Positions 44,242 through 49,444 of a stretch of 64,000 nt of DNA are shown here, piece after piece. The notes under the pieces are model-generated. The model was not told the origin of the DNA. It made no database searches and saw only the letters and a program-made list of their open reading frames with translations. The stretch is from the NCBI GenBank assembly GCA_945787015.1, contig CALZGM010000016.1, forward strand, positions 1 through 64,000, read 5' to 3'. Both the position numbers and the translations under genes were made by a program. Numbering within the stretch: position 1 is the stretch's first letter; each line of letters opens with the position of its first letter. This DNA is from an uncultured Roseburia sp. (GTDB lineage: Bacteria; Bacillota; Clostridia; Lachnospirales; Lachnospiraceae).

Positions 44242-45654
44242 TTACTGTGCCCCCTCTGCCGTCAACACCACTTTTACTGTCTTTAACAAAATCTTAAAAT
44301 CCAGCATTCCAGAAAAATGCCCTATATAATACAACTCCATCTCTTGGCGTTTTCCCGACTCGTAAGTCACATTATTTCTTCCAAAAGCCTGCCAATATCC
44401 GGTTAACCCCGGTTTTAAACTTAAAAGCAAATCCTGATTATCCGGATAATTTTCTTCCAACTCTTTCTTAAGAATAGGCCTCGGCCCTATCATTGCCATA
44501 TCACCTTTTAGAATATTGAAAAACTGTGGTAGTTCGTCAATACTATGTTTTCGGATAAATTTTCCTACTTTTGTAATTCGCGGATCATTATCTAACTTAT
44601 ATTCTTTATAGTATCTCTCCAACTCTTCCGGTGTCAAAATGTCTTCTAATTTATCTGCATTCAGTTTCATGCTTCTGAATTTATAAATATTAAATTCTTT
44701 TCCATATTGCCCCATTCGTTTGGAGACATAAAAAATCGGACCACCATCCTCGAGTTTAATTGCAATCGCCGTTAGAAGTGTAATTGGAAGTGTCAGAATG
44801 ATAGCTGCAAGCGCTACCACAATATCCTGAATTCTCTTTACAATTACGAGACCAAGCGATTTTTCCTTCTCTCTGATACAAAGTGTCTGATATCCATTCA
44901 TCTCTTCCACCTTGTAACGGTAAGAGCGCTTTTCCAAATTTCGAAGCATACGATATACCACTATTTTTTTACGCACCAAGTGATCAATATAATCATTTAC
45001 ATAGGTACCTTGCAAATGGACAAAGACACAATTCACATTATGATTCTCCACATATTCTAACAAATCGTCCCTATATCCGATTACCGGGATTCCGCCGATT
45101 TCTTTTTTATCGCTTTTTTCATAAGTTATGATACCGGTTGCAATCAATCCACTATCTGCCTTATTGGTAAAGTACGCAATTCTGCGTTCCGCATCTTCCT
45201 CATGAATGAAAATCAGATTCTCACCCTGCGTTTTCTTTACCGCTTTTCTTACCTGCTCTTTTCTAAGGAGACGCAGCAAAAAAGTGGCAGGCAGTGTCCA
45301 TGCAAAAAAAGTAAGCAGAACCGCTCTTGAATAGTCTTCCGTTGATTTTGAAATAAAACAATAAAGTGTTAAAGATACAAAAATTCCGGTCACCAATGCA
45401 AATACGCTTTTCATCTCTTCAAAAAAATTTCTCCGTATAATGCCGGAGTATATATTCCAAAACATAACAATAACCAGGAAGGATATTGCCACGATTCCGG
45501 CCATTAATAGGTATTTATCTAAGGATTTTATAAAGGCTTCATATCGAATTTGGCACGCTATAAAAAATGATACTTCCACACAAACAAAATCAATTATTAG
45601 GAAATCAAGATGCTTCAATATACTGTAATTTTGTTTTTTCCTAACTTTTTCCAT
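44242..45654 (-). CDS. Undecaprenyl-phosphate sugar phosphotransferase (WcaJ/EpsL-type)
   Basis: The 470-aa polyprenol-phosphate hexose-1-phosphate transferase starts repeat-unit synthesis on the inner membrane. It has four to five N-terminal helices (FLIIDFVCVEVSFFIACQI, ILLAGIVAISFLVIVMFW-type stretches), a CoA-binding-like middle domain (residues 140-240), one further helix, and the catalytic core with YVSKRMGQYGKEFNIYKFRSM, LDNDPRITKVGKFIRK, SIDELPQFFNILKGDMAMIGPRP and LKPGLTGYWQ. ACGAGGAG precedes the ATG. It is the first gene of the operon, about 370 nt from the promoter at 46024-46052. Confidence 0.95.
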   Translation of the reverse strand: MEKVRKKQNYSILKHLDFLIIDFVCVEVSFFIACQIRYEAFIKSLDKYLLMAGIVAISFLVIVMFWNIYSGIIRRNFFEEMKSVFALVTGIFVSLTLYCFISKSTEDYSRAVLLTFFAWTLPATFLLRLLRKEQVRKAVKKTQGENLIFIHEEDAERRIAYFTNKADSGLIATGIITYEKSDKKEIGGIPVIGYRDDLLEYVENHNVNCVFVHLQGTYVNDYIDHLVRKKIVVYRMLRNLEKRSYRYKVEEMNGYQTLCIREKEKSLGLVIVKRIQDIVVALAAIILTLPITLLTAIAIKLEDGGPIFYVSKRMGQYGKEFNIYKFRSMKLNADKLEDILTPEELERYYKEYKLDNDPRITKVGKFIRKHSIDELPQFFNILKGDMAMIGPRPILKKELEENYPDNQDLLLSLKPGLTGYWQAFGRNNVTYESGKRQEMELYYIGHFSGMLDFKILLKTVKVVLTAEGAQ

Positions 45655-46176: not shown

Positions 46177-46306
46177 ACAATCAAAAAACTCAACAGCTTG
46201 AATCTCTTGAACAGAAATTGAATTCTATAGAGAAAAATAAACTGCAAAGGAAACCGCCACAGGTGATGCTCTAAATGATTTTAGAATATGCTATCGTGGC
46301 GGTTTT
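46177..46306 (+). repeat. Second copy of an Rpn-gene 3' end with its terminator hairpin
   Basis: Frame QQLESLEQKLNSIEKNKLQR aligns with the tail ASLEQKIDSLEKN of the Rpn fragment at 48417. Then AAACCGCCAC (46251-46260) and GTGGCGGTTT form a stem with an inner CTAAA/TTTAG pairing, nearly identical to 48426-48484. On the minus strand the hairpin is also a terminator for the ATPase gene ending at 46313. Confidence 0.8.
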
Positions 46307-46312
46307 CTTACA

Positions 46313-47299
46313 TTATTTTTCGTGATTAAAATCTATTTTCTCCATCGAATTTAATATTTTAGTAATTACTGTCTTCTTTTTATAACCGCTAGCCAATTCA
46401 CTTTTGGAGTACTTCAATTCTCCCATACCTATTGTCATCTGTGTAAGTAAATAAGTAAAGTAACGTTCCCAACTGAACCATCGTATCGTATCTACATAAT
46501 TTTCTGGTTCTGCTAAGATTTTATCCAAACTTATATTTTGCGGTGAACGTATTATCTTTGATTTTAATAGTAACCATTCGAATGATTCCGGTGTATACAA
46601 ATAAAAATTGTCATATCTTTTTAATTTAGCCATCACCTCATTCATTTCGGGACCAAATGCTGCACCATCCACTATGATTAGTGTCTTCTCTTTATAATTA
46701 GGCGTTATGAATTTTTTTACATTTGACTTGCCTTTAGCACTTTTACACGTATATCCAAACTGTTTTCCTACCTCTTCAAAGAATTGAAAGCCAGAATTTG
46801 TATCCTCTGTAATAACACATTTCGGATTTTCTACCATAGGTCCATTTGCTTTACCATATAAATTATATATTTCATTATATGTTTGTGTAGTAACTCCATA
46901 CCGCTTAGACTCTCTTATTCCATATATTTCATTTATACTATAAGGTAAATTAGAAAGTTTTTCACGGGTTATTATTACGTAATAATTATCAGAATATTTT
47001 ATTTGTTCAGCAAACTCTGTTTGCTGAACAAATCTATTTCCTTCATCGATGAATATAATAGAATTTGTCACATGATCCAATTGGCTCTTCCAATTCTTAC
47101 CCTCTATAACAATACACTCTTTATTACATTGTACCTCTACTCCAGAGTCAGTCCCATAATTATTATACGCCCTAATCATATCTACTAATTGTGTTTTTCC
47201 TTTTGCACTATCACCTGATATGATTGTAATTTGTCTGCGAATTTCAAAGTCATATTGCAGTCTTTTAGATTTTACAATAATTCTATATGCTCCTACCAT
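46313..47299 (-). CDS. P-loop ATPase-like protein paired with DUF4869-like gene
   Basis: The 328-aa protein has an N-terminal strand pair (YRIIVKSKRLQYDFEIRRQI), Walker A ISGDSAKGKTQLVDMI, a candidate Walker B NSIIFIDEGNRF about 55 residues later, and VIITREKLSNLPYSI as a sensor-like strand. A second half (residues about 150-328) has YKEKTLIIVDGAAFGPEMNEVM and a helical tail. I know no named function. The start at 47297-47299 is chosen because GGAGG lies five bases upstream, while the longer start has none. It is the second gene of an autoregulated-looking pair. Membrane segments are absent. A defence or toxin-antitoxin-like role is a hypothesis. Confidence 0.7.
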   Translation of the reverse strand: MVGAYRIIVKSKRLQYDFEIRRQITIISGDSAKGKTQLVDMIRAYNNYGTDSGVEVQCNKECIVIEGKNWKSQLDHVTNSIIFIDEGNRFVQQTEFAEQIKYSDNYYVIITREKLSNLPYSINEIYGIRESKRYGVTTQTYNEIYNLYGKANGPMVENPKCVITEDTNSGFQFFEEVGKQFGYTCKSAKGKSNVKKFITPNYKEKTLIIVDGAAFGPEMNEVMAKLKRYDNFYLYTPESFEWLLLKSKIIRSPQNISLDKILAEPENYVDTIRWFSWERYFTYLLTQMTIGMGELKYSKSELASGYKKKTVITKILNSMEKIDFNHEK

Positions 47300-47314
47300 A
47301 GACTCCTCCATTAA

Positions 47315-47758
47315 TCACAAAATGTTATCCGTAATTGGAAATAATTCTTCTGTATTATGCACTATTTCTTTTGTGTTTTCTACATATATCTCAAAAGGTC
47401 CATCTCCAAAGTCCATGAAGTGTCTCAAATTAATGGTAATGTCTTTTATTTTTCCAATTTCTAATAACCATTTTGCGCAATTATCCCCACAGGTAGAAGC
47501 ATTAAATATTGTGTTTGGCTCATTCATTATTAGCAATAGTGTTTTTGTACCACCGGATAATTTTGTTGGTGGAATTTGTCCAAGCACAGGGCTTTCAATA
47601 CATTCTCCGCTTACTACCTCTGAATGGTCTATATCTTTAATTATCTTCTTAGCCATTGTGTCTTCAAGCCATTTTGGCTCATAAGTGTTATCAAATCTAA
47701 CCGAAGTATTGTATACAAATTTATCCTCTTGCATATCTCCATAATATACTTTTAACAT
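47315..47758 (-). CDS. DUF4869-like protein
   Basis: The 147-aa soluble protein begins LKVYYGDMQEDKFVYNTSVRFDNTYE and has SPVLGQIPPTKLSGGTKTLLL, FNASTCGDNCAKWLLEIG and ITINLRHFMDFGD. This pattern recalls DUF4869, named from memory. LSGGTKTLLL looks like an ABC-type signature motif, but no Walker A or true Walker B is present, so it is not an ATPase alone. GGGGGTG precedes the ATG. It is first in a two-gene unit, 15 nt before the ATPase gene, with a promoter overlapping a 24-bp dyad (47802-47825). Confidence 0.7.
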   Translation of the reverse strand: MLKVYYGDMQEDKFVYNTSVRFDNTYEPKWLEDTMAKKIIKDIDHSEVVSGECIESPVLGQIPPTKLSGGTKTLLLIMNEPNTIFNASTCGDNCAKWLLEIGKIKDITINLRHFMDFGDGPFEIYVENTKEIVHNTEELFPITDNIL

Positions 47759-47801
47759 TTTGCACCCCCGCAGTTATATTGTAGGTAAATTTAATACAAC
47801 T

Positions 47802-47859
47802 ACTATATACCGCCAAATATATAGTAAAAACATTATACTACATTTTTTCTTTCTTTCAA
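47802..47859 (-). promoter_or_regulatory. Promoter and start-site dyad of the DUF4869/ATPase pair
   Basis: On the minus strand TTGAAA (47859-47854), 16-nt spacer, TATAAT (47837-47832). Just downstream ACTATATA (47802-47809) and TATATAGT (47818-47825) form a perfect 8-8-8 dyad covering the expected start site. This is a classical repressor-operator position. Confidence 0.65.
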
Positions 47860-47862
47860 ATA

Positions 47863-48417
47863 AGATTTATCCTCTATGAAAAGAGTCCAAAAGAATTTAA
47901 AAAGCATCCAAATGAATATTTGCACTATTCTAAACAGGTATTTAATACCGGTTTAAAATTAAATCTACTACAGGAATACATCATGATTCCTCTTGACATT
48001 TTTCATCAGAACATGGACAATAAAAGCATAGAAACACCGCTAGAAGCATGGCTTACCTTCCTGTCCGATGACAGGCCGGAGAAAATCATTGAATTAATCA
48101 CAGAATATCCGGAATTTAAAGCTATGTATGAAACCCTTTATCAAATGTGTCAAAATATAGAAAAGGTGATGGGAATGTTTTCAGAGGAATTACGGATACT
48201 AGACAGAAATACAGTAAAATATATGGTGGAAGAACAACAGCAGGAAAATGATGCACTTCGAGCTGAAAAAAACGAATTGCAAATGCAGGTTGAGAAACAA
48301 AGTGTTCAAATCAAGCAACAGAGTGCCCAGATCGAACAACAGAATAATACAATCCTGACATTAAATCAGCGACTTGCATCTCTTGAACAAAAAATAGACT
48401 CTTTAGAAAAGAACTAA
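47863..48417 (+). pseudogene. 5'-truncated Rpn/PD-(D/E)XK family gene
   Basis: From 47863 the frame reads FILYEKSPKEFKKHPNEYLHYSKQVF, then TGLKLNLLQEYIMIPLDIFHQNMDNKS and ETPLEAWLTFLSDD, ending in a Gln-rich coiled coil (KQSVQIKQQSAQIEQQNN). This is the C-terminal half of an Rpn-family protein; the nuclease core is absent. A TTG at 47920 could start translation, but there is no family precedent for a protein starting there. The upstream end abuts the DUF4869 promoter, suggesting that the module's arrival removed the 5' half. Confidence 0.75.
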
Positions 48418-48425
48418 CTATGCAT

Positions 48426-48484
48426 AAAACCGCCACAGGTGATGTTCTAAATGATTTTAGAATATCCTATCGTGGCGGTTTTTA
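48426..48484 (+). terminator. Terminator hairpin after Rpn fragment
   Basis: AAACCGCCAC and GTGGCGGTTT with inner CTAAA/TTTTAG pairing, then TTTATTTTT. Nearly identical to the hairpin at 46250-46306. It may act in both directions, also ending the sortase gene at 48500. Confidence 0.8.
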
Positions 48485-48499
48485 TTTTTCCAATATATT

Positions 48500-49336
48500 T
48501 TAATCAAAATCCTTGATATTTGTTTCTCCCAGTAATGTACCCACTACCAGCCATCTGTTGTTCGGCTTTCCTCCAATACAGGTCGATAAGGTAATCAGAC
48601 GTCCATCCTCCGGCACTTCCATTTCTTCCTGAATTTGGTTATTCATCGCTCTGGCCTCTTTCAAATCTTCCATGAACGAAGCGATAGCTTCCGCTTTTGT
48701 AAAATCATATTTATAAAGTAAATGGGCATTGGTAAATTCGCATGCCGCATAAATTTCGTAAACCAGCACCTTTTCAGGTGTATATACATAGATATAGCGA
48801 TTTTCTGCAAAGAACTCGCCATCTTCAAAATAGTGCAGGGTCTTAAACATGGAACCATCCTTCATATTATGTCCATAAAGGATTGTGTTTCTGTCTGAAA
48901 AGTCTTTTGCATTTATATTTTGTGTATAGATACTTCCCGGCAACCCCTTACTATGGTCCAAATTATGATCCAGATAATAGTCTGTTTCCGTTTCATGCTG
49001 CAGAACCGGATAATTGACTTTGGTTTCCGGAATATAAATCCACGCATAAATGTCTTCGTTTTCCTCAGCTAGCGCATTCCAATCTAAGTCCAGCTTCGGA
49101 ATATCGATTCCGCGCTCTGCAAGAGGATCCGGTATTTTCGTTTCAGTCTCAGTTTCCACTACTTCGATTTCCGTTTCTGATTCCACTGGCAGAACATTCT
49201 GTGCCAGTTCTTCATACTGCTTTTGGGCTTCTTTTTTCACAAGATAATCGCGAATCACAAGTCCCATACAAAAAAGAAATCCCACGCTAAATACCACCAT
49301 GAGAATTTGATATACTTTCTTTTTTTGTTTTTCCAT
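48500..49336 (-). CDS. srtB: Class B sortase
   Basis: The 278-aa transpeptidase attaches surface proteins to peptidoglycan. It has an N-terminal anchor (VYQILMVVFSVGFLFCMGLVI), an acidic linker (residues 45-75), and the sortase B core with ILYGHNMKDGSMF (His), LITLSTCIGG (Cys) and NNRWLVVGTL (Arg). The start at 49334-49336 follows GAGGAAT; the longer upstream frame has no signal. It lies directly downstream of a gene whose product ends in SPKTG plus a hydrophobic tail, its likely substrate. Class B sortases of clostridia favour (S/N)PxTG motifs. Confidence 0.93.
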   Translation of the reverse strand: MEKQKKKVYQILMVVFSVGFLFCMGLVIRDYLVKKEAQKQYEELAQNVLPVESETEIEVVETETETKIPDPLAERGIDIPKLDLDWNALAEENEDIYAWIYIPETKVNYPVLQHETETDYYLDHNLDHSKGLPGSIYTQNINAKDFSDRNTILYGHNMKDGSMFKTLHYFEDGEFFAENRYIYVYTPEKVLVYEIYAACEFTNAHLLYKYDFTKAEAIASFMEDLKEARAMNNQIQEEMEVPEDGRLITLSTCIGGKPNNRWLVVGTLLGETNIKDFD

Positions 49337-49359
49337 TTTTATTCCTCTTTCTAAAGTAT

Positions 49360-49444
49360 CCGGGCCACTTACGTGACCCGGATTTACCACATGTTTTTGT
49401 AAGCGTAAAAACACTTTTGTCCCGCACCCCTATAGTCAGGTGCG
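49360..49444 (-). terminator. Hairpin cluster between surface protein and sortase genes
   Basis: Three inverted repeats lie close together: CGCACC/GGTGCG (49423-49444), TGTTTTT/AAAAACA (49392-49413) and CCGGGCCAC/GTGACCCGG with one mismatch (49360-49381). They likely form a partial terminator or processing site, so that sortase is made at lower level than the surface protein. Confidence 0.5.

What the first reader, a model, noticed from the sequence alone, without database searches (positions are those of the whole stretch)
46177..48484. Autoregulated-looking ATPase/DUF4869-like pair bracketed by two Rpn gene tails
Seen: a two-gene unit (47758 to 46313) with promoter TTGAAA-N16-TATAAT and a perfect 8-8-8 dyad over the start site. 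One product has a good Walker A, the other carries an LSGGTKTLLL segment that resembles an ABC signature but no P-loop. Both sides carry related Rpn 3' ends plus the same CCGCCAC hairpin, and the right-hand Rpn copy lost its 5' half where the module begins. Inference: the ATPase could supply the Walker motifs and the small protein the signature, a split arrangement, and the unit could be a mobile defence or toxin-antitoxin-like module in an Rpn hotspot.
Basis: partly seen in the sequence, partly recalled or inferred. Interest (0 to 1): 0.7.

Follow-up and report, generated by a model that had tools for sequence, protein, structure and literature searches.

The report
Split ATPase–nuclease cassette of gut bacteria
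A small two-gene unit found in many gut bacteria pairs a protein family of unknown function with an ATP-binding, nuclease-like protein, and the way its pieces are split, fused and lost suggests a switchable harmful enzyme held in check by its partner, perhaps for defence against viruses.

Summary
Genes 47758-47315 (DUF4869, "L") and 47311-46313 ("PT") form one unit with the stated promoter, dyad, Walker A, LSGG segment and Rpn remnants. They are a conserved pair: 36 of 39 strong DUF4869 hits have PT beside them, and L and PT distances correlate at r=0.85 over 76 loci. PT is a compact P-loop domain (P) joined to a Toprim/DUF4435-like domain (T): with a balanced alignment T matches the ATPase-DUF4435 profile in register (0 of 150 shuffles; a first alignment was not significant, 17 of 150). 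Distant relatives encode L, P and T as separate adjacent genes. L keeps [L/I]-S-x-G-x-K (32 of 32 rows) while P has no room for an ABC signature, so a signature supplied in trans is plausible; the L-ABC match itself is not significant (13 of 150). All 28 intact PT counted have intact L, but 16 of 44 intact L lack intact PT, as expected of an effector and its keeper. The Rpn surroundings and the dyad look local. Most likely: a PARIS/OLD-like ATPase-gated nuclease module, not a member of either family by test.

The parts
47315..47758 (-). L: DUF4869 protein, 147 aa, with LSGGTKTL (residues 67-74) and CGDNCAKW (90-97)
   Evidence: (PF16163 E 7.4e-56)
46313..47311 (-). PT: 332 aa; P = residues about 1-150 (Walker A 33-40, Walker B IIFIDE 85-90, invariant R116), T = about 152-332 (E169 D170, D215, E242-SFE245, E282)
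47832..47859 (-). promoter-like TTGAAA-N16-TATAAT of the unit
47801..47826 (-). perfect 9-8-9 dyad over the expected transcription start; not conserved in relatives
46247..46309 (.). hairpin with CCGCCAC/GTGGCGG arms, directly after the PT stop codon; possible shared terminator
46187..46306 (+). left Rpn 3'-end remnant with its hairpin, 81% identical to 48363-48482
47860..48417 (+). right Rpn (PDDEXK_2) copy, 5' half missing where the unit's promoter region begins
48430..48482 (+). hairpin region of the right Rpn copy

Best explanation
The unit encodes one complex of three modules: L (DUF4869), P (compact ATP-binding core) and T (Toprim/DUF4435-like nuclease-like domain). P binds ATP; L, probably through its LSGG loop, completes or senses the ATP state of P and keeps T inactive; a trigger (most likely phage or other invader activity) breaks this hold and T cuts nucleic acid, stopping growth. 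It works like PARIS/OLD ATPase-Toprim systems, with L as a new, separate regulatory subunit. Shown: pairing, co-divergence, modular splitting and fusion, conserved Walker and Toprim-like carboxylates, one-sided decay. Inferred: physical complex, LSGG in trans, nuclease activity, inhibition by L, antiviral role.
For: Pairing: 36 of 39 DUF4869 hits of 130 bits or more have PT within 400 nt on the same strand in 392 genomes; 48 of 73 over all scores. 77 intact pairs at 76 of 79 genome loci; the other 3 are cut by a contig end (L123, L124) or have an interrupted PT (L132). Gene order varies (71 L-first, 6 PT-first) while adjacency stays. Mirror-tree r 0.85, maximum of 1000 permutations 0.20. Separate L, P and T genes: of 14 distant L places read, 14 have P adjacent and 12 also T, in orders L-P-T (7) and T-L-P (5, one T of only 150 aa). 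L-P fusion of 368 aa. T versus ATPase-DUF4435 profile: E 0.0095 and 0.0036, 0 of 150 shuffles, motifs E, D, E in register. LSGGVKTL: each of the eight positions at least 99% conserved over 76 loci. Decay: 28 of 28 intact PT have intact L; 16 of 44 intact L lack intact PT; length-weighted chance 0.003. In 6 of 8 such loci re-read, P is complete or nearly so in an open frame while T is cut up or not found.
Against: T reaches no Pfam cut-off and no significant PDB match, and its second Asp of the Toprim DxD is replaced (DGAAFG), so it may be inactive. With the first, larger T alignment the DUF4435 match was not significant (E 0.055; 17 of 150 shuffles). The P match to ABC proteins covers mainly Walker A. 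L to ABC: 13 of 150 shuffles reach the score in both tests. Immediate neighbours carry mostly ordinary families, without a defence gradient. Two of 14 distant loci have L and P without T. Decay events are counted as independent although genomes are related, and PT is the longer gene. No toxicity or phage data exist.
Confidence: 0.45

Rival explanations
1. A plain addiction (toxin-antitoxin) cassette: PT is a growth-inhibiting enzyme, L its antitoxin, maintained selfishly with no antiviral role; LSGG is an ordinary binding loop and not an ABC signature.
For: One-sided decay; no recurrent partner genes beyond generic families around the units; tandem and decayed copies; no defence gradient; L-ABC similarity not significant.
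Against: P with Walker A and B plus T is more elaborate than usual toxins; the S and second G of LSGG are kept even in the most distant L.
Confidence: 0.25
2. T is catalytically dead and the complex is a sensor, scaffold or regulator instead of a nuclease.
For: Second Asp of DxD replaced by Ala in nearly all two-gene forms; no Pfam Toprim or DUF4435 hit.
Against: E, D and the later E are invariant across the two- and three-gene forms aligned, which would be unusual for a dead site.
Confidence: 0.15
3. Mobile defence module targeted to Rpn genes, with Rpn tails as recombination sites.
For: Rpn remnants on both sides, 81% identical over 120 nt; the stretch is absent between sortase and sugar-transferase genes in three relatives; one orphan L near a gene that looks by eye like Rpn.
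Against: No Rpn hit by tblastn with two queries in 96 other loci (control; distant Rpn can be missed); PDDEXK_2 is not among the 25 commonest families of 141 neighbours; the tails are too diverged for a fresh target-site duplication.
Confidence: 0.05

Closest known systems
PARIS (AriA ABC ATPase + AriB DUF4435 Toprim; also single-protein ATPase-DUF4435 fusions)
   Same: ATPase plus Toprim-type domain, fused or separate; T aligns to DUF4435 with motifs in register. In PARIS the effector is held by its partner (PMC11455837, read whole; PMC9122126, passages).
   Different: P is a core of about 150 aa without the signature region (start of Walker A to Walker B acid 50-58 residues in 22 of 29 rows measured, against 165-187 in nine ATPase-DUF4435 proteins); an extra partner, DUF4869; T lacks DxD and does not reach Pfam DUF4435.
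OLD family nucleases (Gabija GajA, P2 OLD, retron OLDs)
   Same: N-terminal ABC-type ATPase and C-terminal Toprim (PMC10568477, passages read).
   Different: No signature region in P; no GajB or RT partner recurrent beside it; no significant sequence hit.
DUF4869 (PF16163)
   Same: L is a full member (E 7.4e-56).
   Different: Named a domain of unknown function; 0 papers in the held library name it.
Rpn (RpnL/RpnS)
   Same: Flanking gene remnants; the right copy keeps only the C-terminal part.
   Different: Not shown to be part of the cassette.

Membership tests
DUF4869 (PF16163) | score over Pfam cut-off | tested here: met
   187.9 bits against 28.9
PARIS / DUF4435 (PF14491) | T over the DUF4435 Pfam cut-off | tested here: not met
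   no DUF4435 hit for P0001 or for five separate T proteins at max E 10 (HMMER filters drop most weak matches)
PARIS / DUF4435 (PF14491) | Toprim motifs E, DxD, E in order | tested here: inconclusive
   E, first D and last E invariant, second D of DxD missing; profile match 0 of 150 shuffles with A8, 17 of 150 with A4
PARIS | partner ABC ATPase AriA (AAA_15/AAA_21) | tested here: not met
   P0001 below every Pfam ATPase cut-off; of three separate P scanned, one just passes AAA_22 (27.8 against 27 bits) but none passes AAA_15 or AAA_21; PADLOC AriA only at E 8.5e-4 for one of two separate P
ABC ATPase | Walker A and Walker B | tested here: met
   GDSATGKT and IVFIDE conserved in the two-gene form; the three-gene form often has IDN for IDE
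ABC ATPase | signature (LSGG) between Walker A and B in the same chain | tested here: not met
   50-58 residues from Walker A start to Walker B acid (22 of 29 rows measured); no LSGG seen in the P alignment
ABC ATPase | signature supplied by L in trans | tested here: inconclusive
   motif conserved, best alignment falls on the signature, but 13 of 150 shuffles reach the score
Known anti-phage system (PADLOC-DB 2.0.0) | model hit for either protein | tested here: not met
   0 families for P0001 and P0002
Toxin-antitoxin | toxicity of PT relieved by L | not testable with these tools
   only one-sided decay

The most novel reading that the evidence does not exclude
DUF4869 is a detached ABC signature subunit: an ATPase whose Walker motifs and LSGG signature sit on different genes, so that ATP can be sandwiched only when the two proteins meet, and this composite site gates a Toprim-like nuclease in a new defence or toxin-antitoxin system. 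Virus records carrying DUF4869 without PT (two intact copies in L177) would then carry the keeper subunit as an anti-defence gene.
Probability: 0.3. Interest if true: 0.85.

Novelty: new variant of a known kind. Interest (0 to 1): 0.62.

Why it matters
It gives a testable role to a conserved family of unknown function (DUF4869) in common gut bacteria and links it to ATPase-gated Toprim effectors. If the signature is supplied in trans, it would be, as far as I recall (no search can prove it), a way of building an ABC ATPase site not described before, and the virus-borne orphan copies would point to a counter-defence. Two- and three-gene forms allow clean experiments on each module.

Tried and rejected
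PDB profile searches with L and T gave only chance-level hits. DUF4435 is rare in the family (2 of 150 genomes, 1 over the cut-off), so reference proteins were taken mainly from plasmids. The L profile in a sample of the wider phylum: 1 of 398 genomes, the window's own. Defence-island test: no gradient; the tool gives family tallies, not members. Conserved operator: rejected. Rfam: nothing at the gathering score. Five 'Bacteriophage sp.' records with the unit were not used as phage evidence: several carry what look by eye like bacterial housekeeping genes. PubMed Central searches: DUF4869 0 papers; split-ATPase and three-gene ABC-Toprim terms gave no such system among the titles listed (only 10 titles listed each).

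Rows dropped before counts. One search used 44 of 73 DUF4869 rows (full length, no stop, 94 bits or more) and 28 of 56 PT rows (about full length, no stop). The low-scoring genome G284, broken L copies and the three-gene forms were left out. One search scored at most 5 PT candidates per genome, and PT was searched with one sequence but L with a curated profile, which favours finding L. Against this, 6 of the 16 L places without intact PT (G281, G201 twice, G097, G292, G404) were re-read with P, PT and T profiles and showed no such open frame of 60 aa or more, and 8 others show PT pieces; the last two (G414, G423) rest alone. Six PT rows have no L within 3 kb; all are fragments or interrupted. 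The 14 distant L places are 11 low-scoring rows and 3; G331 and a remnant in G415 were not read.

Full report
What is there. On the minus strand of the window a 147-aa gene (47758-47315) is followed after 3 nt, in the same frame, by a 332-aa gene (47311-46313). The first is a full DUF4869 (PF16163) member, E 7.4e-56; the second reaches no cut-off in Pfam or NCBIfam and no family in PHROGs or PADLOC. Below I call them L and PT. Right after the PT stop codon lies a strong hairpin (46247-46309, z -6.1) that belongs to an Rpn 3' end and may end the transcript.

The site. In three same-genus loci (L216, L217, L219, of 30 sortase loci read, the window's own included) the sortase gene (like 48500-49414) is followed within 0.2-1 kb by a sugar-transferase gene (29-38% identical to 44242-45654) with no Rpn, L or PT hit between them. 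Most of the other loci are too short or differ in order to tell. So the stretch with both Rpn remnants and the unit is variable. The genus is probably that of Roseburia faecis: contig C5 of the same-genus genome G027 and an R. faecis M72 record have the same length, 447,869; this is an inference. The two Rpn tails are 81% identical over 120 nt, too diverged for a fresh target duplication. Two Rpn queries gave no hit in 96 other loci, 88 of them with DUF4869 (positive control), so Rpn looks like local scenery. The same queries also miss a gene in L245 that looks by eye like Rpn, about 0.8 kb from an orphan L, so distant Rpn may be missed.

The pair. In 392 genomes of the order, DUF4869 occurs in 42 and PT in 35. 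Of 39 DUF4869 places of 130 bits or more, 36 have PT within 400 nt on the same strand; of all 73 places, 48. They hold 77 intact pairs at 76 loci, 71 with L first and 6 with PT first; the three others are cut by a contig end (L123, L124) or have an interrupted PT (L132). Distances of L and PT correlate at r 0.85 over 76 loci against a permutation maximum of 0.20. By record titles the hosts are mostly Lachnospiraceae and other Clostridia, with Selenomonas, plasmid records of Ruminococcus albus and Agathobacter rectalis, and a Collinsella record. In a sample of the wider phylum only the window's own genome matched, 1 of 398.

Three modules. PT has an N-terminal P-loop core: Walker A GDSATGKT, Walker B IVFIDE, an invariant Arg. 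Its C-terminal part has invariant E169, D170, D215, E242-SFE245 and E282 in 26 aligned sequences (further relatives). A distant set of DUF4869 proteins (LSSG, LSTG or LSAG in place of LSGG) shows how it divides: of 14 such places read, 14 have a P gene of 133-164 aa adjacent and 12 also a T gene (225-280 aa, one of only 150 aa), in orders L-P-T (7) and T-L-P (5); two have L and P only. The separate T of locus L182 matches the C-terminal part of the PT profile (E 6.7e-9 in a small set of ORFs). One draft genome (G284) carries an L-P fusion of 368 aa. Splitting, fusing and reordering of the same three modules is good evidence that they work as one complex.

What T is. T reaches no Pfam cut-off and no significant PDB match. 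Against a profile of nine ATPase-DUF4435 proteins (A7) the first T alignment (A4) landed on the DUF4435 domain but without significance (E 0.055; 17 of 150 column shuffles). After adding the bridging T of locus L183, which reads VEG as in Toprim motif I, a balanced set (A8) gave E 0.0095 and 0.0036, and 0 of 150 shuffles reached the score; the E, D and E motifs align in order. The second alignment was chosen after the first had failed, which should temper the result. I take T as a Toprim/DUF4435-like domain. The second Asp of DxD is missing, so activity is not assured.

What L may be. LSGGVKTL is at least 99% conserved at each position in 76 loci; over 32 diverse L proteins the S, the second G and the K stay invariant. 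From established knowledge of ABC ATPases (recalled), the Ser and second Gly of the signature touch the ATP of the partner. P has no space for a signature: nine ATPase-DUF4435 proteins have 165-187 residues from Walker A to Walker B with the signature 26 before Walker B, whereas P has 50-58 (22 of 29 rows measured). The best local alignment of L with the A7 profile falls on that signature in both tests, once continuing through the Walker B region, but 13 of 150 shuffles reach the score each time. The trans-signature is attractive and unproven.

Direction of dependence. Counting only full-length, uninterrupted genes, 28 of 28 PT have an intact L beside them, while 16 of 44 intact L have a broken or missing PT. 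With breaks distributed by gene length, and taken as independent, the chance is 0.003. Of the 16, six were re-read and show no PT open frame of 60 aa or more. Eight more were re-read with P and T profiles: in six P is complete or nearly so in an open frame while T is cut up or not found, in G155 both are short, and in G215 both are incomplete. So it is mainly T that goes. This is what a harmful effector and its keeper would leave. Caveats: at most 5 PT candidates per genome were scored, and PT was searched with one sequence. Two IMG/VR virus records carry L without PT in the held record: L177 with two intact copies, and L176 with a TAG codon at a conserved Trp.

Context. The units sit mostly among ordinary genes; no neighbour family recurs strongly. 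PADLOC hits occur among near genes (Wadjet JetD, Cas3, Gabija-type helicase, methyltransferases) but about equally among far genes of the same loci, so neighbourhood does not decide for defence. One three-gene locus (L009/L192) lies beside a type IIG restriction-like gene, and an AAA ATPase (by eye) follows there and in L193.

Mechanism proposed. L and PT (or L, P and T) form a complex; P binds ATP; L, perhaps by its LSGG loop, completes or reads the site and restrains T; a trigger frees T to cut nucleic acid. This is how PARIS is described: AriA holds AriB until a phage protein releases it, and AriB cuts tRNA (PMC11455837, whole text; PMC12409363, abstract and section on cleavage). OLD-type nucleases share the ATPase-Toprim design, and PARIS has been proposed as their class 4 (PMC10568477, passages). 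The unit works like these; it is not filed under them because the Pfam DUF4435 and AAA_15/AAA_21 thresholds and the in-chain signature were tested and not met.

Verdict. The unit is a candidate new ATPase-Toprim effector module with DUF4869 as a novel partner. No paper naming DUF4869 is in the held library.

Noticed in passing
window 47001-47033: Perfect 15-bp inverted repeat with a 3-nt loop inside the PT coding sequence; the longest in 79 PT genes of relatives is 9, codon-shuffle maximum 10 of 200. Function unknown.
   Followed up: partly
window 47860-48417: The truncated Rpn keeps only the C-terminal part; a preprint abstract (PMC10327210, search listing) says Rpn C-terminal parts are made separately and block the full-length toxins. 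This could be an orphan RpnS-like remnant.
   Followed up: no
L177 6892-7431 and 7668-8444: 126-kb IMG/VR virus record with two intact DUF4869 genes, one with about 110 extra N-terminal residues, and no PT in the held record.
   Followed up: partly
L176 8097-8099: TAG at a conserved Trp codon of a virus DUF4869; no TAG among the stops of 16 open frames of 120 aa or more in that locus, so TAG may be recoded there, or the gene is broken.
   Followed up: partly
L182-L190, L192, L193, T genes: Separate T proteins carry a conserved Cys cluster (G-x-C-[WF] ... DC/SCC ... C) absent from the fused form; possible metal site.
   Followed up: no
   Followed up: no
L213 (MT835885.1): Record labelled Bacteriophage sp. 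reads by eye as a bacterial contig (rapZ-, whiA-, dnaE-like genes) with the unit among them.
   Followed up: partly
L212: The unit lies near genes that look by eye like CRISPR type I cas genes.
   Followed up: no
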